Source: Sycon ciliatum (taxonomy: Eukaryota; Porifera; Calcarea; Leucosolenida; Sycettidae). From it: 64,000 nucleotides of DNA. Within the stretch, counting starts at the first letter, position 1, and every line of letters starts with the position of its first letter. The DNA lies in the NCBI RefSeq assembly GCF_964019385.1, contig NC_088645.1:26996863-27060862 (forward strand), in the 5' to 3' direction. Below, in pieces: positions 6,651-54,756 of the stretch. The translations under genes and the position numbers were made by a program. The notes beneath the pieces were generated by a model. It was not told the origin of the DNA, ran no database searches, and saw nothing but the letters and a program-made list of their open reading frames with translations.

Positions 6651-6662
6651 AAACTGCAATCA
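6651..6662. repeat. 12-bp target-site duplication, left copy
   Basis: AAACTGCAATCA, identical to 7181-7192 on the other side of the retrozyme-like insertion. Confidence 0.85.
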
Positions 6663-7180
6663 GTACGAAGTAGTGGTTGCGACTTCGGCGATAATTTGTA
6701 AGAAAGGGTTTGCTCCCCACACCGGAGCTCGCGCTATTCCGCCGACTTTACTTGACACTTGACTGACTCACGACTGCCATCCAGAGCACACGAGAAGTCC
6801 ATCGAACCTTCGACTCGGCAAACCTGCAAGAAAGCACCACTCCCTGCTCAATACACAGTGTTTCGGGGAATTCACCCCTCATCAGTTGAGCTTGAGTAGG
6901 CTGAGGAAGATTGTGCCTGAAGAGCACCACTTATATAGTGCTCTCCAGGCACAAACATCACCAGGGATACAAACTTAGAGAGACGCTCCGTTTCCAGCGC
7001 GACAAACACCTCGTGAACACCAGATAGCAGCGTGAGTCAGTGTCGCTCCTGGACGGTGAGACAGACGTCGAGGACCCTCGGTCATTCGCAACGCTGTCAC
7101 CTCCAAACCTACTAGTCGCAAGCCCGCGCTGCGCACAACAGTACGAAGTAGTGGTTGCGACTTCGGCGATAATTTGTAAG
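6663..7180 (-). mobile_element. Single hammerhead-ribozyme retroelement (retrozyme-like) copy
   Basis: Inverse copy of the approximately 478-bp unit that is tandemly repeated at 38.9-44.1 kb. It is 518 bp long because its two ends carry the same 40 bp (6663-6702 and 7141-7180), so it is a little more than one unit. It is flanked by a perfect 12-bp direct repeat AAACTGCAATCA (6651-6662 and 7181-7192), the expected trace of insertion by target-primed reverse transcription. The sense strand holds a TATA motif and a canonical hammerhead ribozyme. Confidence 0.85.
6837..6900 (-). ncRNA. Type I hammerhead ribozyme, canonical core
   Basis: On the minus strand: stem I 5' side CUACUC-AA-GCUCAA, core CUGAUGA, stem II GGGG / CCCC closing a UGAAUU loop, GAAA, a 2-bp stem III (CA / UG, loop CUG), cleavage triplet GUA, then stem I 3' side UUGAGC-AGG-GAGUGG. 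GCUCAA pairs perfectly with UUGAGC, and CUACUC with GAGUGG through one G-U. All invariant core bases are present. Short stem III hammerheads like this are known from metazoan retrozymes and Penelope-like elements. Self-cleavage is predicted after the GUA. Confidence 0.88.
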
Positions 7181-7192
7181 AAACTGCAATCA

Positions 7193-14127: not shown

Positions 14128-15483
14128 GTGAGATTAACAACAGGAAGATCTACTCTCCTGTTCCCCACCGAATTGTTATTGAATTATATACAGATGCAAT
14201 TACTCAAGTCTGTGGACAACAACTGTTTCGCTCTGTTAGAGCTCATCAGCACAGCTGAGAGGACCGAAGCGCAGCTCTTCGCAATGAAATACGTTTCCGT
14301 AAAGCAAAGCATTTTTATAAAGAGCTGCAAACCCCGCCAAGAGTGCTCGAAATGCTCAAAGAGCAGTGAGCGCTGCACAAGGCGAGCGGCAAGGATTCGC
14401 GCTAAGGTAAGAGTGCTCAACCTGACGACATTGCTGACGCTAGGGAGCATAATACTCAAATCTGTGGACAGCATCTGTTTCGTTCTGTTAGAGCTCATCA
14501 GCACAGCTCAGAGGACCGAAGCGCAGCTCTTCGCAATGAAATACGTTTCCGTAAAGCAAAGCATTTTTATAGAGAGCTGCAAACCCCGCCAAGAGTGCTC
14601 GAAATGCTCCAAGAGCAGTGAGCGTTGCACAGGGCGAGCGGCAAGGGCTCCTAAGGTAAGAGTGCTCAACCTGACGACAGTGCTGACGCTAGGGAGCATA
14701 ATAATAAAGTCTGTGGACAGCAACTGTTTCGCTTTGTTAGAGCTCATCAGCACAGCTCAGAGGACCGAAGCGCAGCTCTTCCCAAGGAAATACGTTTCCG
14801 CAAAGCAAAGCATTTTTATAAAGAGCTGCAAACCCCGTCAAGAGTGCTCGAAATGCCCCAAGAGCAGTGAGCGTTGCACAAGGCGAGCGGCAAGGGTTCG
14901 CGCTAAGGTAAGAGTGCTCAACCTGACGACATTGCTGACGCTAGGGAGCATAATACTCAAGTCTGTGGACAGCAACTGTTTCGCTCTGTTAGAGCACATC
15001 AGCACAGCTCAGAGGACCGAAGCGCAGCTCTTCGCAATGAAATACGTTTCCGCAAAGCAAAGCATTTTTATAAAGAGCTGCAAACCCCGTCAAGAGTGCT
15101 CGAAATGCTCCAAGAGCAGTGAGCGTTGCACAAGGCGAGCGGCAAGGGTTCGCGCTAAGGTAAGAGTGCTCAACCTGACGACATTGCTGACGCTAGGGAG
15201 CATAATACTCAAGTCTGTACAGATGCAATTAGACACAAATTACATTGGCGAAAGCTCATTGCTACAAATCTCCGTGGGTTTATATTTTCAGGTGAACTAT
15301 ACCATGGATTGGCAGAAGCAACAGATGAAAGCCAACCACACTGGCCTGGATGAGGGAAGCTCCTCCATCCAAGGCAGCGCTGCAACGCTTCAAAGTAGCA
15401 GTGTACAAGTACCTCCTGGTGCAAACTTGTGGCACTGCTGGCGACATGCACACTACAGACTAGCATATTGCCTGATGGCCTAA
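14128..15483 (+). CDS. Open frame built on a 252-bp tandem repeat
   Basis: A 451-codon frame, four-fifths of it four 84-residue repeats (KSVD.NCFALLELIS, RTEAQLFAMKYVS, then SCKPRQECSKCSKSSERC and LTTLLTLGSII). The unit length is a multiple of three (one unit has lost one codon), so the frame stays open through all four. Each copy also contains AAG|GTAAGAG, a good splice-donor sequence, at the same place. That leaves two readings: a real repetitive Cys-containing protein, or duplicated exons with donors that happen to remain open. No known domain. The flanks after 15215 are unique. The first Met is the frame's own start and has no support. Confidence 0.35.
   Translation: MRLTTGRSTLLFPTELLLNYIQMQLLKSVDNNCFALLELISTAERTEAQLFAMKYVSVKQSIFIKSCKPRQECSKCSKSSERCTRRAARIRAKVRVLNLTTLLTLGSIILKSVDSICFVLLELISTAQRTEAQLFAMKYVSVKQSIFIESCKPRQECSKCSKSSERCTGRAARAPKVRVLNLTTVLTLGSIIIKSVDSNCFALLELISTAQRTEAQLFPRKYVSAKQSIFIKSCKPRQECSKCPKSSERCTRRAARVRAKVRVLNLTTLLTLGSIILKSVDSNCFALLEHISTAQRTEAQLFAMKYVSAKQSIFIKSCKPRQECSKCSKSSERCTRRAARVRAKVRVLNLTTLLTLGSIILKSVQMQLDTNYIGESSLLQISVGLYFQVNYTMDWQKQQMKANHTGLDEGSSSIQGSAATLQSSSVQVPPGANLWHCWRHAHYRLAYCLMA
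14195..15231. repeat. Tandem repeat, 4 units of about 252 bp
   Basis: Unit starts (TCTGTGGAC) at 14209, 14461, 14710 and 14962, with a partial fifth at 15214; spacings 252, 249, 252, 252. Copies differ at only a few positions each. The array is bounded on both sides by TACAGATGCAATTA (about 14189 and 15218), so it sits between short direct repeats. Confidence 0.9.
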
Positions 15484-23419: not shown

Positions 23420-25941
23420 CCCTTTGTGCGCTCAACGAGCGATTTCGCTCGTTTCAAATGCGCGTCACATTTTTGATCGTCGCGCTTGACTGGTTTACCG
23501 CATCGCGCCGAGACTTCACCACCGCGTACCTGAGAAAATTTCCGTGACGTAGGTACTAAACATGATGTAGGTCGCCACTAAATTTTTTTTGATAGCACGC
23601 TTTGAAAGAGCCTTTGCAATTATGTCAAAATTAGAATTTGGACTTATCCAGCGATGGATGCAGACGAGGCGCTTCGCCTAATACAAGACGCGGACCAAGC
23701 AGATCTCCCAGTAGAGGATATCGCTTGCTCTTCAGGCGACGAGGTAGGCGACTCGGACAACGATTTTATTTCGTCTGACGAGGAAGATCGCCTGAATGAC
23801 GATCTCTTTTCCGACTTGGAGCAAATAGGATCCGATTCGGCTGACGATATCGCTATTCCTGTTCCCGTCGCTGCTCGTGGACGTGGCCCTGGACGAGGCA
23901 GAGGCCAAGCAGTAGGTGTCCCCGCGCGTGGAAGAGGGCGAGGACGTGGAGCTGCGACAGGGCGAGGACATTGAGTTGCGACAGGGCGAGGACGTGGAGC
24001 TGCAAGAGGGCGAGGACGCGGAGCTGCAAGAGGGCAAGGACGAGGACGTGGTATACAGTACGAAAATTGTAGTGGCTATGATGATGTTGACCAGCTGCAA
24101 ACCAATACACCTGAGTTCAACATAACTGGCACTGGTTTGAACCTACCTGATAATTTCGCTCCAACATGTGAACTTGATTTCTTCAAACTATATTTCCCGG
24201 ACGAAGTTGTGGATTCAATTGTCAAGTTTACAAATTTGTATGCGCACGAGCATATCGCTGAAAAAAAGACGTACCAGACGGATGGTGTGTGGAAGGAGAC
24301 CAACCGTAATGAGTTTTACGGCCTCCTTGCATTTCTCTTCTTCCAGGGATTTCATCCTCTGCCTGCGACGAGGGACTACTGGCGCGTTACGTCGTTGTAC
24401 AACGGAAACTATGCACGCTGCATGATTCGAACCTACCGGAGGTACTTAGCGCTGATGTGCTTCATCAAGATTGTGGACTTCAGGGCAGAGGATATAAATG
24501 ATCGACTTCGTAAGGTGCGATACCTTCACGACCATCTGCAGGCGGCCTGCAAGCGTTTGTTCATCCCTGGCAAGTGCGTTAGTGTTGACGAGCGCATGGT
24601 CAAGTGCAAGGGACGCGCTCCTTTTACGCAGTATATGCCCAAAAAGCCCGTCAAATGGGGCTTCAAGGTCTTCGCTGCCTGCGACGCCCAAAGCTCCATT
24701 GTTGTAAACTTTGAAGTTTACACAGGCCAGCAACCTGGAGGTGAAAATGGCCTGACTCATGCTGTGGTGATGCGGCTGGTCAGTGACGTGCGCGCCGGAA
24801 GTGTGATCTACACGGACAATTTTTACACTTCCGAAACCCTGGCCACATCTCTTCGTACCAAGCAAATATCGTTGGTTGGCACCGTCCGCGCGAACCGCAC
24901 TGGATTTCCAGCCGTATTGCGGACCGACATGAAACAGTTCGAGAAACATGCAGAGCGAGGTGCAACACGCTATGTTCGCAACGGAGATCACCTGTACCAG
25001 CAATGGAAGGACAAGCGGTGTGTGTCAATGTACAGCAACATACATCAGGGCCATGAGCATGACACAGTAACAAGAAATGTCAAGATTGATGGTGCACACC
25101 AGCAAATGGAAGTGCAGAGGCCAATGTGCATCAGAGACTACAACAGCAGCATGGGTGGAGTCGACACGTTCGATCAGCTGATCGAAACGCACCGTGTGCT
25201 TCGCAAAACGAAGAAATACTGGAAGAGTCTCTTCTTGGATATGGTCGACGTGTGCGCTGTCAATGCATACCGCCTCTTTCACTTGTGGCAGAGCCAGCAT
25301 CCAGGGGTGATAAGTCGACGATGCAACTTGCAGCACTCGGATTTCCGCTGTAACCTCATCCGGCAGCTGTCATCGATTGATGAGCATGCACCGCCACCGA
25401 AGCGCTCGTATCGCCCAGTGCCTGTTCCGCAGGATGTCCAGGTTCCTGTTGCTCAGCTTCACATACCTGGAGTGAGGAAAAGGAAGAACTGCAGAAACTG
25501 CACAGAAGTGGGTAACAAGCAGCACCAGTGTGTAACCTACTGCACTACGTGCGATGTTCACCTCCACATCACGAGCGACCACGACTGCTACGCCGCTTAC
25601 CATGCACGCCACTTCCCGTGAAGGATATCTTATCTCAGTGCTGTGAGTTTCTATCTTGTCTACTGTATATTTGTACATAAAAGTATGGTTTCATTTCCTT
25701 CCTATGGTGCGCTCTGTAAATAACGCGGCTATACACTTGATTATGACAATATGTGCCTAATATGGCAACATTGGTAACCATGGCAACATTCTAACATAGT
25801 TTTTTGGATTCAGCCGAACGATTCCATTCAGAAAAACACAACTTCTAATTACATATTCTCAAAAACTGTGGAGTTACAGGGGATTATTGTCGGAATGGAA
25901 AATTTGGTCATTTTCTCCGAAACCAGTGGACTCACAAAGGG
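23420..25941 (+). mobile_element. Full-length piggyBac transposon, 2.52 kb
   Basis: The ends are CCCTTTGTG on the left (23420-23428) and the inverse CACAAAGGG on the right (25933-25941), with scattered further matches. Both are flanked by TTAA, as required for piggyBac. A hairpin-forming GAGCGATTTCGCTC lies just inside the left end (about 23439-23452). The element has one transposase frame and nothing else. Intact ends and a nearly open gene suggest recent mobility. Confidence 0.95.
23654..25621 (+). pseudogene. piggyBac transposase with one premature stop
   Basis: From ATG 23654 a single frame of 655 codons runs to TGA 25619-25621, broken only by TGA 23972-23974. N-terminal acidic region (SSGDEVGDSDNDF) is followed by an Arg-Gly repeat (RGRGPGRGRG) in which the stop lies; the neighbouring repeat has CGTGGA where this has CATTGA. 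The DDE/D catalytic domain follows, with the first Asp in SVDERMVKCKGR, the second in VIYTDNFYTS and the third in NSSMGGVDTFDQ. It ends in a Cys/His-rich finger (CRNCTEVGNKQHQC, CTTCDVHLH, HDCYAAYH). All are standard piggyBac features. The catalytic part from about 24040 on is intact. Confidence 0.92.
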
Positions 25942-26532: not shown

Positions 26533-28084
26533 CTGAAAGATTAAAACAAACATGAGCAGTGAAACAAGAAAGAGAATGGCATAACATCAGATCTGTGGAG
26601 AAATATTCACGGTTCACAAAAGAGCCAGAGAGACTAACTGGTCCGCCAGCGGTTGTAAAGCCATTCCTAAGTCATTCAGTACACATGCACATGAATTTGC
26701 TCTGCGAACTATCGACTAAGTTACTGGCCGATCAAAGTCGCAACAAGAACCTCAGGCATCGTTCGACAACCTCAGCACAAGGTCCGGCTAAGTCGTGACG
26801 GACCACAAGTCCTCTTAAGGGTATTCTCCGCTTACAATCATTTACCCCAGCCCAAGTAAACAAGCTGCTCGCTCAGGGTAGCGCAAGCTAAGTACGGGGA
26901 GTGACGGTCTTCCGGAATTGGCCCTTAAAATGACCTCTTACACATTTGCCCTTTCCTTCAGTGACTTCTTTACGAGTCCTTGTGACCTGGGAAAGTGCCA
27001 GCTGCATTCAAGCTCTCTTATGTTTCTCCCCTTTTCAAAGTGGGGACACTGACCGTTGCCATAACGGTAGTCCCGGCGATACCTCTGGTTTCGATCGTGT
27101 CCCGCCTAGTTCACACTCGACGGGGCGGGACGGGACGCAACGTAAGAATCGACTGGAAGGGACAGGACTGTCTGACAGCGTCCAATGTGAACACCAGGAT
27201 CGGGAACGCAGCGTACTAACGTACTGATCTTGAAGTGGAGGGAAAAGTTGGATCAGTTCATCTTTTCATACCCTAGACGTAGACGAGGAAGTAAGCATAC
27301 AAAACGGCTGCTTTTGAGTGTGTACAGGAGACGGCGTCGTGCGCTAACTACTATCGATTCGTACCTAGACATTTTGAACTTTTCGAACGCTATCCATGAT
27401 AACTCGCAGAATGGCTAACCGTTCAAGAGCGTGACAGACACACTGTATTATCACTTACTGGGGCTATATTTTGAATGGCAAAACCTTCAGGCTACGTTTT
27501 TGGTTTCCATGAAACACTGGTACTGCGAACTTGATTCCGTTTCATTTTAAAGAGAAATAATAGAAAAGAGATTAGAAGCGGTGAGGCCTCTTGCAGTTTC
27601 ATACAGAATTACAGATGGAGCGGACTCGCTCCCTTCTATTTACACTGCAACGTTCGAACACATTTTCGTAGTTAAAACAACGTTTCGGTATATAGCCCTC
27701 ATCAGGTTTGCAATGATGTGCACTCTACAAAGGAGCAGCAAATATACTGTGCTGTGCTGTGTTTGCGCCAAATGTGTCAGCTACAAAGGTGGCGAAAGGG
27801 ATTGGTGATATATTAATATCCAGATACGATATATTCACAGTAGTGCCCAGCCAGCATTAGTGTTTACTTGCGGCCGCAAGTTGCGGATTTCAACAGATTT
27901 CAATAGAAAAGAAGTATTAAAAAAATTAGAAATTAGGTACAAATGTCACCCTGTCACTCATCGTGACTTGTGACTCGCGCAGTTTGCTGTTGAACATCAC
28001 AACGACTGCAGCGTGCTGTGTCCTAAGAATCGTACAAGATTTTACCGCTCGCCTCAGCCGTCCCAACAGGCCCGTAAGTCCTGC
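26533..28084. other. Intron of the receptor gene; mostly unassigned
   Basis: No coding signal recognised. The minus strand at 27671-27712 reads CCUGAUGA, a possible stem, GAAACGUUG, resembling a hammerhead core, but no stem III or cleavage triplet could be placed. Confidence 0.35.
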
Positions 28085-38588: not shown

Positions 38589-38740
38589 CTAATTTATACA
38601 CAAGTGCAGGGCAGTTCACAGTTTATCCACAATCACAGCTACCAACTAGATGTTATGCTCCTTCACATGCAGCTAGTGCTGCTGTCACTCCGGACAAAGC
38701 ACTTTTTATTTATGTATTTATTTTTTAAACTACTGTAAAT

Positions 38741-38905
38741 ATGAAGTAGTGGTTGCCACTTCGGCGATGATTTGTAAGAAAGGGTTTGCTCCCCACACCG
38801 GAGCTCGCGCTATTCCGCCGACTTTACTTGACACTTGACTGACTCACGACTGCCATCCAGAGCACACGAGAAGTCCATCGAACCTTCGACTCGGCAAACC
38901 ACTAC
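38741..38905 (-). repeat. Inverted partial retrozyme-like unit at the array edge
   Basis: Matches 6663-6830 in the same orientation, so it is head-to-head with the array that starts at 38906. Confidence 0.8.
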
Positions 38906-39115
38906 TTCGTACTGATGTGCCCTGCGCAGGCTTGCGACTAGTTGGTTTGGAGGTGACAGCGTTGCGAATGACCGAGGGTCTTCGACGTCTGTCGCACCGT
39001 CCAGGAGCGACACTGACTCACGCTGCTCTCTGGTGTTTACGAGGTGTTTGTCGCGCTGGAAACGGAGCGTCTCTGTAAGTTTGTATCCCTGGTGATGTTT
39101 GTGCATGGAGAGCAC

Positions 39116-39122
39116 TATAAAA
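39116..39122 (+). promoter_or_regulatory. TATA box in palindrome loop, first of the array
   Basis: TATAAAAG between AGAGCAC and GTGCTCT; the same arrangement at 39594, 40065 (TATATAAG), 40543, 43576 and, on the minus strand, near 6933. Promoter activity is inferred. Confidence 0.5.
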
Positions 39123-39153
39123 GTGGTGCTCTTCAGTCACAATCTTCCTCAGC

Positions 39154-39216
39154 CTACTCAAGCTCTACTGATGAGGGGTGAATTCCCCGAAACACTGTGT
39201 ATTAAGCAGGGAGTGG
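39154..39216 (+). ncRNA. Hammerhead ribozyme, unit a (stem I damaged)
   Basis: Core CUGAUGA, GGGG/CCCC, GAAA and GUA present; stem I GCUCUA / UUAAGC has two mismatches. Confidence 0.75.
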
Positions 39217-39630
39217 TGCTTTCTTGCAGTTTTGCCGAATCGAAGGTTCGATGGACTTCTCGTGTGCTCTGGATGGCAGTCGTGAGTCAGTCAAGTGTCA
39301 AGTAAAGTCGGCGGAATAGCGCGAGCTCCAGTGTGGAGAGCAAACCCTTTCTTACAAATCATCGCCGAAGTCGCAACCACTACTTCGTACTGTTGTGCCA
39401 AACGCGGGCTTGCGACTAGTTGGTTTGGAGGTGACAGCGTTGCGAATGACTGAGGGACCTCGACGTCTGTCTCACCGTCCAGGAGCGACACTGACTCACG
39501 CTGCTATCTGGTGTTTACGAGGTGTTTGTCGCGCTGGAAACGGAGCGTCTCTGTAAGTTGGTATCCCTGGTGATGTTTGTGCCTGGAGAGCACTATAAAA
39601 GTGGTGCTCTTCAGGCACAATCTTCCTCAG

Positions 39631-39694
39631 CCTACTCAAGCACAACTGATGAGGGGTGTATTCCCCGAAACACTGTGTATTGAGCAGGGAGTGG
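39631..39694 (+). ncRNA. Hammerhead ribozyme, unit b
   Basis: All core bases present; stem I GCACAA / UUGAGC has one mismatch; stem II loop is UGUAUU. Confidence 0.82.
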
Positions 39695-40101
39695 TGCTTC
39701 CTTGCAGGTTTGCCGAGTCGAAGGTTCGATGGACTTCTCGTGTGCTCTGGATGGCAGTCGTGAGTCAGTCAAGTAAAGTCGTCGGAATAGCGCGAGCTCC
39801 GGTGTGGGGAGCAAACCCTTTCTTACAAATCATCGCCGAAATCGCAACCACTACTTCGTACCGTTGTGCCCAGCGCGGGCTTGCGACTAGTTGGTTTGGA
39901 GGTGACAGCGTTGCGAATGACCAAGGGTCCTCGACGTCTGTCTCACCGTCCACTATCGACACTGACTCACGCTGCTATCAGGTGTTGACGAGGTATTTGT
40001 CGCGCTGGAAACGGAGCGTCTGTGTAAGTTTGTATCCCTGATGATGTTTGTGCCTGGAGAGCACTATATAAGTGGTGCTCTTCATCCACAATCTTCCTCA
40101 G

Positions 40102-40165
40102 CCTACTCAAGCTCAATTGATGAGGGGTGAATTCACCGAAACACTGTGTATTGAGCAGGGAGTGG
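40102..40165 (+). ncRNA. Hammerhead ribozyme, unit c (core mutated)
   Basis: UUGAUGA replaces CUGAUGA and stem II reads GGGG / CACC, so it should be inactive. Confidence 0.75.
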
Positions 40166-40579
40166 TGCTTTCTTGCAGGTTTGCCGAGTTGAAAGTTCGA
40201 TGGACTTCTCGTGTGCTCTGGATGGCAGTCGTGAGTCAATCAAGTGTCAAGTAAAGTCGGCGGAATAGCGCGAGCTCCAGTGTCGGGAGCAAACCCTTTC
40301 TTACAAATCATCGCCGAAGTCGCAACCACCACTTCGTACTGTTGTGCCCAGCGCGGGCTTGCGACTAGTTGGTTTGGAGGTGACAGCGTTGCGAATGACC
40401 GAGGGTCCTCGACGTCTGTCTCACCGTTCAGGAGCGACACTGACTCACGCTGCTATCTGGTGTTTACGAGGTGTTTGTCGCGCTGGAAACGGAGCGTCTC
40501 TGTAAGTTTGTATCCCTGGTGATGTTTGTGCCTGGAGAGCTCTATATAAGTGGTGCTCTTCAGTCACAATCTTCCTCAG

Positions 40580-40643
40580 CCTACTCAAGCTCAACTGATG
40601 AGGGGTCAATTCCCCGAAACATTGTGTATTGAGCAGGGAGTGG
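40580..40643 (+). ncRNA. Hammerhead ribozyme, unit d (intact)
   Basis: CUGAUGA, GGGG-UCAAUU-CCCC, GAAA, stem III CA/UG with loop UUG, GUA triplet, stem I GCUCAA / UUGAGC all present. Confidence 0.87.
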
Positions 40644-41040
40644 TGCTTTCTTGCATGTTCTCGAATCGAAAGTTCGATGGACTTCTCGTGTGCTCTGGAT
40701 GGCACACGTCAGTCAAGTGTCAAGTAAAGTCGGCGAAATAGCGCGAGCTCCAGTGTGGAGAGCAGTATGGAGAGGAAACCCTTTCTTACAAATCATCGCT
40801 GAAGTCGCAACCACTACTTCGTACTGTTGTGCCCAGCGCGGGCTTGCGACTAGTTGGTTTGGAGGCGACAGCGTTGCGAATGACCGAGGGTGCTCGACGT
40901 CTGTCTCACCGTCCAGGAGCGACGCTGACTCACGCTGCTATCTGGTGTTTACGAGGTGTTCGTCGCGCTGGAAATGGAGCGTCTCTGTAAGTTTGTATCC
41001 CTAGTGATGTTTGTGCCTGGAGTGCACTAGCATATGTACG

Positions 41041-41658
41041 CAGGGCGCGAAATAACGGTCGGACATCGGACAATTTCCGACCGTTTACGGTCAGTTTCCG
41101 GATGTTTTGTACATATCCGGACAAAGTGTCCGCGCACCTTTTTGCAAAGCACAAAAAAGAAAAGGCACTTCAATATTTTGTCACATAGTCATTAGTGATG
41201 TCGTCTGGCAAGAGAAAGCCAAGCACCGCTGATGCGGGTGCTCCTCTTGGAAAGAAGCCCAGAGGAGTCAAGACGACCACTTGTGACAACTGGGTCGCCG
41301 AGTATGATAGGGAGCTTTCAACTACTTCTGTTTGGCTGAGCTATGAGCGCAGTCCCTCAGATCGTAGCGTTGTCGAAAATTTGAAGTGTAAGATGTGTTC
41401 CCGTTTTGTTGATAAAATTCGCAGCAGCAAGAATTTTTCTGACTCCTTCGTCGTTGGCTCAAGGAACCTGAAAACGTCAGCCTTCAAAGATCATGCTGCT
41501 TCTGAAATGCATCGTCGTGATAACATTTCGATGGTATTAATTCTACACTGAACATTGTGTGATTTGATGTGAAAGTTGCATGTCCGGACATGTCCGGCCA
41601 TTTTTGCAACGGCAGGTCATTGTGTCAGAGCATATTTTAATCCTTAGCGCATGCCCTG
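41041..41658. mobile_element. Small hAT-like element
   Basis: Left end CAGGGCGCGAAATAACGG, a typical hAT terminus; right end GCATGCCCTG. Only CAGGGC is shared inversely. Flanked by GTACG on both sides (41036-41040, 41659-41663). It holds one exon-like gene part (41198-41551) and inverted GTCCGGACA motifs. hAT elements usually make 8-bp duplications, so the 5-bp flank is a reservation. Confidence 0.6.
41198..41551 (+). CDS. BED-type zinc-finger fragment of a hAT-derived protein
   Basis: ATG 41198; a GTG three bases earlier is in frame. 117 residues: basic, Ser-rich start (GKRKPST, KKPRGVK), then WVAEYDRE, VWLSYERS, and LKCKMCSRFVDKIR, with FVVGSRNLKTSAFKDHAAS and MHRR. This is the finger arrangement C-x2-C...H-x5-H of the hAT-derived proteins related to ZNF862/C17orf113. 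The frame ends shortly after the finger. A possible splice donor (ATG|GTATTA) lies where homology ends, so it may be a first exon whose later exons are lost. Confidence 0.6.
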   Translation: MSSGKRKPSTADAGAPLGKKPRGVKTTTCDNWVAEYDRELSTTSVWLSYERSPSDRSVVENLKCKMCSRFVDKIRSSKNFSDSFVVGSRNLKTSAFKDHAASEMHRRDNISMVLILH

Positions 41659-42879
41659 GTACGCAACAAGTCTGTAACGGACCAACGTATCTTGCTAACC
41701 CAATCAATGGCTGTGAATATTGATAATGGCACTAATTTTGACCTGATATCTTTAGATTTCAGGAAAGCTTTCCACCGGGTCGACCACTCTATACTCCTAA
41801 AGAAATTCGGTAAGATTGCTAAAGCTTTGTCAGTAAAATGGCTGAAGAGCTTCTTAGGGGATCGACAAATTGAAGTGAAGGTACATACCACTAAATCGAA
41901 GAAGCAGAGCATCAACTGCGGAGTGCCGCAAGGTTCCCACCTTTCACCACTCCTATTCCTACTCTATATAAATGACCTGCCCAACGCTATGCAACATTGC
42001 ACGCAATATCTATTTGCAGATGATGCCACCCTCCTACTGGCGTACAAACCTGAAGACACCCTCGCCAATAGAGCGAACATGCAGTCTGATCTCGATGCAT
42101 GTCAAACATGGGGCAGGAACAATGGAGGTGAATTCTCAGCAAGCAAGACATCCGTGCTGTGCCATAGAGCTATCAATGATACACCTACTGCAGGAATCCA
42201 ATACCAAATGTACAATGAGCCATTAACGGTGGTTTCTGAACTGCAACATCTTGGCATCACCTTGACCGACAACCTGGATTTCCACAAACATGTCGCCTCA
42301 ATAACTTCGAAGTTCAGATATCGAGGGCACCTACGGTCAATTATGTCCCAGCAACTTACGCCTTCGGCAATGATCATACTGTACAAAGGGTTCGTAAGAC
42401 CTGTGATCGAATATAGCTGTACGGTGTGGTCGTTTGGATCTAATAAGAAACCCATGACCACTCTTGATCACTTACAGGCAAGGTTTGCTAGAGCTCTACT
42501 GAAAAAGAAAAAAATTGCATTTGATTACACTTCTTCCAAATCTGTCTTAAATTCTAAATGCTCCCTAGAGTCACTAGCCTATCGTCGTCAAATCATCAGT
42601 CTCACTACTTTTCACAGATATGTTTTCCATCATCGTGATTACCTTGCTGATTTCCATTTCAAGATTACGAATAGTGAGCGACGACCAAATAAAATCATTC
42701 TTCCCAAATTTAAATCATTGTCTAAGTCTCTCTTCATGTTCCGAACTGCTATTCTATGGAACTGTTCACCCCCCAGTCTAACATCGGAAGCCTCGCTCTA
42801 TAAGTTCAAAGCTGCCCTCAGGAAATTTACAGCTGACTATGCTTATGCAATCAACGGAATTCCGCCACCTTGCAGTTGA
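41659..42879 (+). CDS. LINE reverse transcriptase, 5'-truncated but open
   Basis: The frame is open from the truncation point to TGA 42877-42879 (about 406 codons). It starts VRNKSVTDQRILLTQSM, then ISLDFRKAFHRVDHSIL (RT motif A with catalytic Asp), INCGVPQGSHLSPLLF (motif B region), YLFADDATLLL (active-site FADD), LQHLGITLTDNLDF, and the thumb and C-terminal FRTAILWNCSPPSL. The 5' endonuclease and first RT motifs are missing, so it cannot act alone. Different in detail from LINE B and D; CR1/L2-like clade by general look. Confidence 0.85.
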   Translation, partial: VRNKSVTDQRILLTQSMAVNIDNGTNFDLISLDFRKAFHRVDHSILLKKFGKIAKALSVKWLKSFLGDRQIEVKVHTTKSKKQSINCGVPQGSHLSPLLFLLYINDLPNAMQHCTQYLFADDATLLLAYKPEDTLANRANMQSDLDACQTWGRNNGGEFSASKTSVLCHRAINDTPTAGIQYQMYNEPLTVVSELQHLGITLTDNLDFHKHVASITSKFRYRGHLRSIMSQQLTPSAMIILYKGFVRPVIEYSCTVWSFGSNKKPMTTLDHLQARFARALLKKKKIAFDYTSSKSVLNSKCSLESLAYRRQIISLTTFHRYVFHHRDYLADFHFKITNSERRPNKIILPKFKSLSKSLFMFRTAILWNCSPPSLTSEASLYKFKAALRKFTADYAYAINGIPPPCS

Positions 42880-42995
42880 TTTTCCCCATTTCTCTCCTCA
42901 TCAATCCCTACTTCTCTTTGTACATACATCTACATCTACTGTTCTTTCAATCAAATGAACCCCTCGATAGGCACATTGCCTTTGGGTCATTTCAT

Positions 42996-43017
42996 AATAA
43001 TAATAATAATAATAATA
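42996..43017 (+). repeat. (TAA)n tail of the LINE
   Basis: Seven TAA-type units directly after the 3' UTR. Confidence 0.9.
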
Positions 43018-43134
43018 TAAGTATGGCAATAAGTAACACGAGCTGAAGCGACATGTGGACATATTAAAATTATTGTCTCCTCGTCGAATTTTTAAATAAT
43101 ATAAGTGGTGCTCTTCAGGCACAATCTTCCTCAG

Positions 43135-43198
43135 CCTACTCAAGCTCAACTGATGAGGGGTGAATTCGCTGAAACACTGTGTATTGAGCACGGAGTGG
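43135..43198 (+). ncRNA. Hammerhead ribozyme, unit e (stem II damaged)
   Basis: Core intact, but the stem II 3' side reads CGCU instead of CCCC. Confidence 0.75.
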
Positions 43199-43613
43199 TG
43201 CTTTCTTGCAGGTTTGCCGAGTCGAAGGTTCGATGGACTTCTCGTGTGCTCTGGATGGCAGTCGTGAGTCAGTCAAGTGTCAAGTAAAGTCGGCGGAATA
43301 GCGCGAGCTCCGGTGTGGGAAGCAAACCCTTTCTTACAAATCATCGCCGAAGTCGCAACCACTACTTCGTACTGTTGTGCCCAGCGCGGGCTTGCGACTA
43401 GTTGGTTTGGAGGTGACAGCGTTGCGAATGACCGAGGATCCTCGACGTCTGTCTCACCGTCCAGGAGCGACACTGACTCACGCTGCTATCTGATGTTTAC
43501 GAGGTGTTTGTCGCGCTGGAAACGGAGCGTCTCTGTAAGTTTGTATCCCTGGTGATGTTTCTGCATGGAGAGCACTATAAAAGTGGTGCTCTTCAGGCAC
43601 AATCTTCCTCAGA

Positions 43614-43676
43614 CTACTCAAGCTCAACCGAGGAGGGGTGAGTTCCCCGAAACACTGTGTATAGAGCAGGGCGTGG
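43614..43676 (+). ncRNA. Hammerhead ribozyme, unit f (core mutated)
   Basis: CCGAGGA replaces CUGAUGA; other parts recognisable. Predicted inactive. Confidence 0.7.
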
Positions 43677-44111
43677 TGCTTTCTTGCAGGTTTGCCGAGT
43701 CGAAGGTTCGATGGACTTCTCGTGTGCTCTGGATGGCAGTCGTGAGTCAGTCAAGTGTCAAGTAAAGTCGTCGGAATAGCTCGAGCTCCGGTGTGGGGAG
43801 CAAACCCTTTCTTACAAATCATCGCCGAAGTCGCAACCACTACTTCGTACTGTTGTACCCAGCGCGGGCTTGCGACTAGTTGGTTTGGAGGTGACAGCGT
43901 TGCGAATGACCGAGGGGCCTGGACGTCTGTCTCACCGTCCAGGAGCGACACTGACTCACGCTGCTATCTGGTGTTTACGAGGTGTTTGTCGCGCTGGAAA
44001 CGGAGCGTCTCTGTAAGTTTGTATCCCTGGTGAGGTTTGTGCCTAGAGAGCACTATATATTCCTGAAGAGCACCACTTAACGTGGTGCTCTTCAGGAACA
44101 ATCTTCCTCAG

Positions 44112-44141
44112 CCTACTCAAGCACAACTGACGAGGGGTGAA
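44112..44141 (+). ncRNA. Hammerhead 5' half, unit g (truncated)
   Basis: CUGACGA (allowed variation at the seventh core base), GGGG/UCCC and GAAA, after which the unit ends. Confidence 0.6.
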
Positions 44142-44530
44142 TTTCCCGAAATGCTACAGGATCCGAAGCTCAAAAATAAAATTGGGTTTGCCACTTTACT
44201 CCGAGTATTTGCCGCTTTCAGGGCTGATAGGTGATAGTTATAGAAGGTCAATTTTGTTTGTTGGCCCTTCTGAATCCGGGAAGGAGACGAGCGGCGAGAG
44301 GGTTTTCGTCGACGATTTCGCTAGCCTTCTCAAGCGTTCTCAAGAAGGTCGCAAATTTATTTTTGTCGTGCGTCCGTACGCGCATGGCTTGAGCATGTAC
44401 ACATTGCGCACCTACGACAAACATTTGAAAAATTTAGAAAATTACGACGCCGTAGAAAATGACGACGATGGCCGGGGAACTTATTTGAGGAAGCACGAGG
44501 TCTTTCAATTTCATTCCCACGCGAGTAAGC

Positions 44531-54572: not shown

Positions 54573-54756
54573 CGGGTCGCTTGGAATCGCCATCGGAGTC
54601 TCCAGTGGAAACCATGCGGAGGGAAGGGTGATCCACGCTAGCACCCTGGCTTGGCCCTGCTTATTAGCTTGCAGCACAGCCAGGGTGCTAGCGTGGATCA
54701 CCCTTCCCTCCGCATGGTATCCACTGGAGACTACGATGGCGATTCCAAGCGACCCG
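54573..54756. repeat. Perfect-looking 79-bp inverted repeat (hairpin)
   Basis: Arms 54573-54651 and 54678-54756 with 26-base loop and only two or three mismatches (e.g. CATCGGAGT/CATCGTAGT). Lies between the primer-binding site and the polyubiquitin fragment of the LTR element. Confidence 0.9.

What the first reader, a model, noticed from the sequence alone, without database searches (positions are those of the whole stretch)
38906..44150. Tandem array in which each 478-bp unit carries a type I hammerhead ribozyme: a retrozyme-like element
Seven unit copies (four full left of a LINE insertion, three right of it) plus an inverted single copy at 6.7-7.2 kb contain the same motif: CUGAUGA, GGGG/CCCC stem II, GAAA, 2-bp stem III, GUA cleavage triplet and stem I GCUCAA/UUGAGC with a second helix CUACUC/GAGUGG. 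The consensus is canonical in the 6.8-kb copy and unit d; other units have single damaging changes, as expected of decaying copies of an active consensus. Metazoan retrozymes are described as tandem repeats with type I hammerheads giving circular RNAs; at 478 bp this unit is longer than most that I know of, and it has a TATA box and splice-like signals.
Basis: partly seen in the sequence, partly recalled or inferred. Interest (0 to 1): 0.92.

Follow-up and report, generated by a model that had tools for sequence, protein, structure and literature searches.

The report
Ribozyme repeat with Penelope-type insertion marks
A 478-letter repeat that carries a self-cutting RNA, present in thousands of places in this genome, bears the insertion marks of Penelope-like retrotransposons, which suggests that their enzyme copies it, probably from a small RNA circle.

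Summary
The array (really 38740-44151) is built of 478-bp units, each with a type I hammerhead ribozyme; a single inverted copy lies at 6663-7183. A strict descriptor finds intact hammerheads at unit d (40595) and at the 6.9-kb copy, and none in 150 shuffles. The core has 5,171 places in the genome.

'Retrozyme-like' is partly right. Fetched elements are mostly not plain tandems but head-to-head inverted arms whose outer ends lie at two fixed unit positions about 32 nt apart (A, B). Of 19 closed elements, 12 have both ends at such sites; all 12 have one A and one B end, with 11-29-bp direct repeats around them. Four of four Penelope-like elements (PLEs) with both ends resolved look the same. 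The A terminus matches a PLE tail at 12 of 13 letters (0 of 20,000 shuffles). In three elements all compared pieces, in both arms, are identical, as if one monomer was the template.

Best reading: a non-autonomous ribozyme satellite of PLEs. PLE mobilisation of animal retrozymes is a published proposal; this is sequence evidence for one family. That the unit is the pseudo-LTR of an unseen autonomous PLE is not excluded. No RNA was tested.

The parts
38740..38900 (-). Inverted partial unit (unit positions 222 to 62), head to head with the direct units; outer end at site A
38897..39167 (+). First, partial direct unit (positions 208-478)
39168..39645 (+). Unit a; hammerhead with two broken stem I pairs
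39646..40116 (+). Unit b; 7-bp deletion, one broken stem I pair
40117..40594 (+). Unit c; one core change and one broken stem II pair
40595..41029 (+). Unit d, cut off at unit position 428 by the insertion
40581..40643 (+). Intact type I hammerhead of unit d (both stem I helices, stems II and III, core)
41030..43098 (.). Insertion that splits the array: zinc-finger-like fragment and reverse transcriptase fragment
43099..43149 (+). Remnant of the split unit (positions 428-478)
43150..43627 (+). Unit e; one broken stem II pair
43628..44126 (+). Unit f; hammerhead with two core changes and two broken pairs
44127..44151 (+). Truncated hammerhead at the right end
6663..7183 (-). Single direct copy of 521 nt, more than one unit; sense 3' end at site A
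6837..6899 (-). Intact hammerhead of the single copy
6651..6662 (.). 12-bp direct repeat, left of the single copy
7181..7192 (.). 12-bp direct repeat, right of the single copy (overlaps the element end by up to 3 bases)
6712..6728 (-). Hairpin with TGT in its loop (unit 158-174) before site B
6696..6700 (-). Site B (unit about 186-190), inferred reverse transcription start
6665..6677 (-). Terminus at site A (unit 209-221), 12 of 13 letters as in PLE family 1

Best explanation
The 478-bp unit is a non-autonomous hammerhead element mobilised in trans by the reverse transcriptase/GIY-YIG endonuclease of Penelope-like elements (PLEs) of the same genome. Shown from sequence: a hammerhead in each unit; head-to-head arms; outer ends at two fixed unit positions (B about 188, A about 221), one of each in every element with both ends at such sites; direct repeats around the insertions; frequent (ATT)n targets; a start module that resembles that of the genome's PLEs. 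Inferred: transcripts are cut by the hammerhead into 478-nt monomers that are ligated into circles; a PLE protein binds the start module and cuts both strands of AT-rich DNA; each DNA end primes reverse transcription, one at A and one at B; each arm runs up to several laps on the same monomer; the two cDNA arms are then joined, which gives an inverted array.
For: 12 of 12 elements with both ends at start sites are A+B, and direct repeats of 11-29 bp flank all 12, while 99% of 500 random pairs of window sites share 8 bp or less. 4 of 4 PLEs with both ends resolved (L052, L053, L056, L058) are one tail end plus one short end with 11-14-bp repeats. A terminus 12 of 13 letters as in PLE family 1, 0 of 20,000 shuffles; hairpin before B in the unit (49 of 20,000 shuffles) and in 8 of 9 PLE segments. 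A end followed by ATTATTATT: 428 matches, some counted twice, reversed control 0. L021, L026, L028: 11, 13 and 4 comparisons of pieces, all identical, both arms included. The single window copy is longer than one unit. Intact-looking PLE frames exist: at least 33 of the 57 rows have an open frame of 800 or more residues without a stop. Published PLE behaviour fits: two adjacent internal start sites, both strands cut, ATT preference (PMC11167929); inverted pLTRs, tail on one of them, trans-mobilisation by pLTRs (PMC3846280).
Against: No RNA evidence of any kind. Rfam does not recognise the hammerhead. 7 of 19 closed elements have only one end at A or B; L016, L023 and L031 have no direct repeat. 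16 private variants sit in some but not all pieces of an element, and pieces of L037 (4.0%) and L036 (5.6%, one comparison) differ more than the mean between elements (2.4%), which a single monomer template does not explain without age or repair. PLE family 1 shows its A end before ATTATTATT only twice in the genome. The hairpin was noticed after looking; L057 and the PLE copy in the window (loop AGTC) lack the TGT loop. Beyond the short start module no sequence is shared with the fetched PLEs. The fetched elements are the best matches to one window unit, not a random sample.
Confidence: 0.7

Rival explanations
1. The unit is the pseudo-LTR of an autonomous PLE family that was not fetched here; the arrays are its ORF-less or solo-pLTR copies rather than an independent ribozyme satellite. 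The mobilising enzyme would be the same.
For: pLTR-like layout: TATATAA 52 bases before the hammerhead inside a 44-base inverted repeat, hammerhead, then start module. Among the first 100 places listed two same-strand pairs lie 2,893 and 2,902 bp apart, close to the 2,935-2,938-bp period of PLE arrays.
Against: No PLE hit lies in those two gaps (only 56 of 3,573 candidates were scored). The one gap I could read, 4.9 kb on C1, holds LINE-like sequence. Of 13 GIY-YIG loci none has the 478 unit as its pLTR; 11 carry a different, minimal hammerhead.
Confidence: 0.22
2. A classical metazoan non-LTR retrozyme moved by a LINE; inverted arms come from twin priming.
For: Type I hammerhead, tandem units, direct repeats at insertions; LINE-like reverse transcriptases abound in the window.
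Against: Two fixed ends used one each, no poly-A seen, PLE-like start module; the classical retrozymes of the same genome (L002-L004, 252-bp array) end about 11-13 nt after the cut and show no inverted arm.
Confidence: 0.06
3. Satellite DNA spread by unequal crossing-over, with a fossil hammerhead.
For: The window array is old (mean 5.2% between its pieces) and lies in a segment repeated on the same contig.
Against: Thousands of dispersed places, direct repeats and fixed ends, elements without internal divergence.
Confidence: 0.02

Closest known systems
Penelope-like elements, Penelope/Poseidon clade (PMC11167929, PMC3846280)
   Same: Head-to-head inverted repeats, two adjacent start sites (tail of about 30-40 bp on one end), direct repeats, AT-rich/ATT targets, hammerhead and TATA box near the start module
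   Different: No ORF in the unit; unit is 478 bp and non-coding; hammerhead with a 3-bp, loop-closed stem III instead of the minimal form
Metazoan non-LTR retrozymes (PMC7229834)
   Same: Type I hammerhead, tandem units of a few hundred bp, thousands of copies, direct repeats longer than 4 bp
   Different: Inverted arms, two fixed ends, higher GC (53.8%), longer unit (478 bp); RNA circles not tested here
Sequences moved in trans by Penelope pLTRs in Adineta vaga (PMC3846280)
   Same: pLTR sequences suffice to move unrelated DNA, with direct repeats and an inverted pLTR
   Different: A few single events there, an abundant self-contained family here

Membership tests
Metazoan non-LTR retrozyme | Type I hammerhead in each unit | tested here: met
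   not recognised by Rfam
Metazoan non-LTR retrozyme | Tandem units of 150-450 bp | tested here: not met
   478 bp, slightly above
Metazoan non-LTR retrozyme | GC below 50% | tested here: not met
   53.8%; the 252-bp unit beside it has 50.4%
Metazoan non-LTR retrozyme | Direct repeats larger than 4 bp | tested here: met
Metazoan non-LTR retrozyme | Expressed as linear and circular RNA | not testable with these tools
   no RNA data
Metazoan non-LTR retrozyme | No LTR, primer-binding site or polypurine tract | not tested
   not searched for
Penelope-like element | ORF with reverse transcriptase and GIY-YIG endonuclease | tested here: not met
   unit frames match no PLE ORF; hence non-autonomous at best
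Penelope-like element | Inverted repeats, head to head, with a tail at one end only | tested here: met
   12 of 12 elements with both ends at start sites; 7 of 19 closed elements not scorable for this
Penelope-like element | Direct repeats at the target | tested here: met
   11-29 bp in 12 of 12, length uncertain in microsatellites
Penelope-like element | Minimal hammerhead (stem III lacking its loop) | tested here: not met
   unit has ACA-CUG-UGU; most PLEs here have GAAACGTTG
Penelope-like element | Reverse transcription starts at the two sites | not testable with these tools
   inferred from ends only

The most novel reading that the evidence does not exclude
A ribozyme satellite of PLEs: an RNA circle made by its own hammerhead that carries a copy or mimic of the PLE start module and is copied from both cut DNA ends at an obligate pair of start sites. 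This would tell who moves at least one class of animal retrozyme-like elements and would show that the PLE tail is a two-site device, one site per DNA end.
Probability: 0.48. Interest if true: 0.78.

Novelty: new variant of a known kind. Interest (0 to 1): 0.64.

Why it matters
Which enzyme moves animal retrozymes is open: PMC7229834 and PMC7761336 name PLEs as likely candidates, mainly because both kinds occur together and carry type I hammerheads. Here one hammerhead family shares ends, start module, inverted arms and target choice with PLEs of its own genome, while classical retrozymes beside it do not. That makes the question testable in vitro with a PLE protein and a 478-nt RNA, and gives a large natural set of insertions for working out how PLEs start and join two cDNA arms.

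Tried and rejected
Rfam models for the hammerhead: no match in the 478 units. RF00163 in the whole genome: 21 matches among 74 scored candidates; the 10 loci fetched carry another hammerhead family. Autonomous element in a 4.9-kb gap between two unit copies on C1: LINE-like sequence and a diverged (79%) unit piece, rejected. Unit frames against the PLE loci: matches only to unit copies lying in those loci, plus chance-level hits. Conservation of the hammerhead: its 26-mer has 5,171 places and a control 26-mer of the unit 7,010; copies may be truncated away from the start sites, so this says nothing for selection. Substitutions per site over 89 copies are 0.0094 in pairs and core against 0.0151 in the rest: weak, not used. 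Copies are too alike for a covariation test, and none was run. The circle folds to -197.6 kcal/mol against -161.5 (sd 5.8) for 40 mononucleotide shuffles: compatible with a structured circle, not proof.

Papers seen: PMC7229834, parts 1-3 of 6 and passages; PMC11167929, parts 1-2 of 4; PMC3846280, passages and one section; PMC7761336, passages; the rest only as search listings. Cervera 2014 and Lunse 2017 on PLE hammerheads are not held; I know them from citations and recall.

Full report
What is there. The window lies on contig C3 of an unnamed 538-Mb genome of 313 contigs; introns, LINEs and PLEs make it eukaryotic, most likely animal (inference). The array first seen at 38906-44150 runs from 38740 to 44151. 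It starts with an inverted partial unit (38740-38900) joined head to head to direct units of 478 bp, is split by an insertion with a reverse transcriptase fragment, and ends inside a hammerhead. A single direct copy of 521 nt, more than one unit, lies at 6663-7183 on the minus strand between 12-bp direct repeats.

The ribozyme. Each unit holds CTGATGA, a 4-bp stem II, GAAA, a short stem III with a CTG loop, GTA, and a stem I of 6 bp followed by an internal loop and a second 6-bp helix. A strict descriptor hits unit d (40595) and the single copy (6885), plus two units of another array at 14 kb, with 0 hits in 150 shuffles. Of 89 copies aligned from the window and fetched loci, 68 keep all 19 pairs and 12 core letters. 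Rfam reports no hammerhead in these units, so the identification rests on the descriptor and on the copies. The hammerhead fold of 72 bases has -19.5 kcal/mol; the predicted minimum, -22.1, keeps stems I and II but pairs the core and stem III differently.

The family. The 26-base core has 2,637 forward and 2,534 reverse places with up to two mismatches; the reversed pattern has none. The unit search listed 136 matches from 40 scored of 714 candidates. Thirty loci were given; merged they are 22 regions, one of them the window itself. They are the best matches to one window unit, not a random sample.

The ends. Counted by hand, there are 24 elements: 22 in the other regions and two in the window (one extra fragment in L034, the short pieces in L052, L056 and L064, and short weak matches in the window were left out). 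Five are open or run into N (L013b, L032, L034, L037, L040). Of 19 closed ones, 12 have both outer ends at one of two places: A after ..CACTACTTCGT (about unit 221) or B after ..CCCTTTCTTA (about unit 188), give or take a few bases. All 12 (L013a, L018, L021, L024, L025, L026, L028, L029, L033, L035, L036, L039) have one A and one B, in opposite arms; independent choice would give that with probability 1 in 4,096. The other seven (L012, L015, L016, L023, L031 and both window elements) have one end at A or B and the other elsewhere; L012 is a near-copy of the window array (97.6% over 2,460 columns) and L015 shares its flank with L018. Direct repeats of 11-29 bp flank all 12; 99% of 500 random pairs of window sites share 8 bp or less, though AT-rich repeats would share more. 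In (ATT)n targets, 7 of the 12, the length is uncertain. L016, L023 and L031 have none. Genome-wide, the A end followed within 4 bases by ATTATTATT has 428 matches, some ends counted twice, against 0 for the reversed pattern.

One template per insertion. In L021, L026 and L028 all compared pieces, both arms included, are identical (11, 13 and 4 comparisons). Between 18 elements the mean difference is 2.4%, the smallest 0.9% (unit positions 180-230 left out). In these 18, private variants are in all pieces 25 times (15 of them across both arms), in some but not all 16 times, in one piece 113 times. This fits one monomer as template, best a circle, followed by independent decay. Against it stand the 16 intermediate variants (L016, L031, L033, L034, L037, L039) and the high internal divergence of L037 (4.0%) and L036 (5.6%, one comparison). 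A transcript of a uniform young array would also give identical units, so the circle is inferred, not shown.

The PLEs beside it. Thirteen loci with a GIY-YIG match were fetched. Eleven carry a minimal hammerhead-like motif, mostly ..GCCGAAACGTTG; L051 and L062 do not. Four have both ends resolved (L052, L053, L056, L058): all four have one tail end and one short end, and direct repeats of 11-14 bp. In 9 of the 12 loci L052-L063 a sequence ATGAARCTG.. like the start of an ORF (MKLQDAS and variants) follows the short end. In family 1 the tail ends ..CACCGCTACTTCGT, in the 478 unit ..AACCACTACTTCGT: 12 of the last 13 letters agree, the next best place in the unit has 8, and none of 20,000 shuffles reaches 12 near A. 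The family 1 tail pattern has 69 places, reversed control 0, but only 2 run into ATTATTATT. A hairpin with TGT in its loop stands 11-16 nt before B in the 478 unit (49 of 20,000 shuffles) and a like hairpin in 8 of 9 PLE segments. I noticed it after looking; L057 lacks it, and the PLE copy in the window has AGTC in that loop. A PLE protein search lists 57 matches from 56 scored of 3,573 candidates; at least 33 rows have an open frame of 800 or more residues without a stop in the match, some in arrays of 2,935-2,938-bp period and in head-to-head pairs.

How it most likely works. Transcription from a promoter near TATATAA (letters only) gives multimers; hammerheads cut them; monomers are closed to circles (inferred from published retrozymes). 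A PLE protein cuts both strands of AT-rich DNA and starts at A on one end and at B on the other; each arm runs round the same RNA; the arms are joined head to head. The start and end geometry is read from the genome; enzyme, circle and order of steps are inferred.

Comparison. PMC11167929 (parts 1-2) shows for an Anolis PLE internal starts at two adjacent sites that explain the tail, cutting of both strands and an ATT preference; there no difference of start site between strands was seen, and hammerhead mutants did not affect insertion in vitro. PMC3846280 (passages, one section) describes inverted pLTRs, a 31-bp tail on one of them, direct repeats of 8-10 bp, a TATA box, palindromes at pLTR 5' ends and trans-mobilisation. 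PMC7229834 and PMC7761336 propose PLEs as likely movers of animal retrozymes. In the library I found no paper that shows it. Classical retrozymes in the same genome (226/228-bp in L002-L004; 252-bp array in the window) have direct arrays ending about 11-13 nt past the cut.

Verdict. The finding is real. Its best name is a non-autonomous, hammerhead-bearing PLE satellite rather than a plain retrozyme; by tested features it is a strict member of neither published family. The main open point is whether an autonomous PLE with this unit as its pLTR exists; two 2.9-kb gaps between unit copies on C1 would tell and could not be read.

Noticed in passing
window 14199-15218, minus strand: A second, unrelated hammerhead array: 252-bp units, canonical type I hammerhead (best Rfam hit Hammerhead_HH9 31.6 bits, below its cut-off of 52), with a 14-bp direct repeat at both ends; its core has 311 places in the genome.
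   Followed up: partly
window 27540-27720, minus strand: End of a PLE: minimal hammerhead at 27705, hairpin, then ATGAAACTGCAAGAGGCCTCACC like PLE tails elsewhere in the genome.
   Followed up: partly
window 16020 (minus) and 31967 (plus): Two further hammerhead-like motifs, CTGATGAGCC..GCGAAA/GGCGAAA..CGTC, of a sort different from the others.
   Followed up: no
window 54611-54720, plus strand: Near-perfect inverted repeat of some 46-bp arms; Rfam microRNA matches are all below their cut-offs, so more likely a foldback element.
   Followed up: no
C3 about 26.47-26.50, 27.01-27.04 (window) and 28.47-28.50 Mb: 478-bp and 252-bp arrays recur together about 25-34 kb apart at three places of the contig, suggesting a segment present three times.
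   Followed up: partly
L005 (C1:44379916-44382962) near 1507: A stretch little longer than a hammerhead of the 226-bp family, inserted within ATT repeats.
   Followed up: no
L051 (C291:1000-10999): The best GIY-YIG match lies on a 17.5-kb contig with long frames; its end looks like bacterial UvrC (recalled, not tested), perhaps a contaminant.
   Followed up: no
window 23975-25618, plus strand: Open frame of 548 residues with a DDE_Tnp_1_7 transposase domain (PF13843, E 1.3e-74; piggyBac-like by recall).
   Followed up: no
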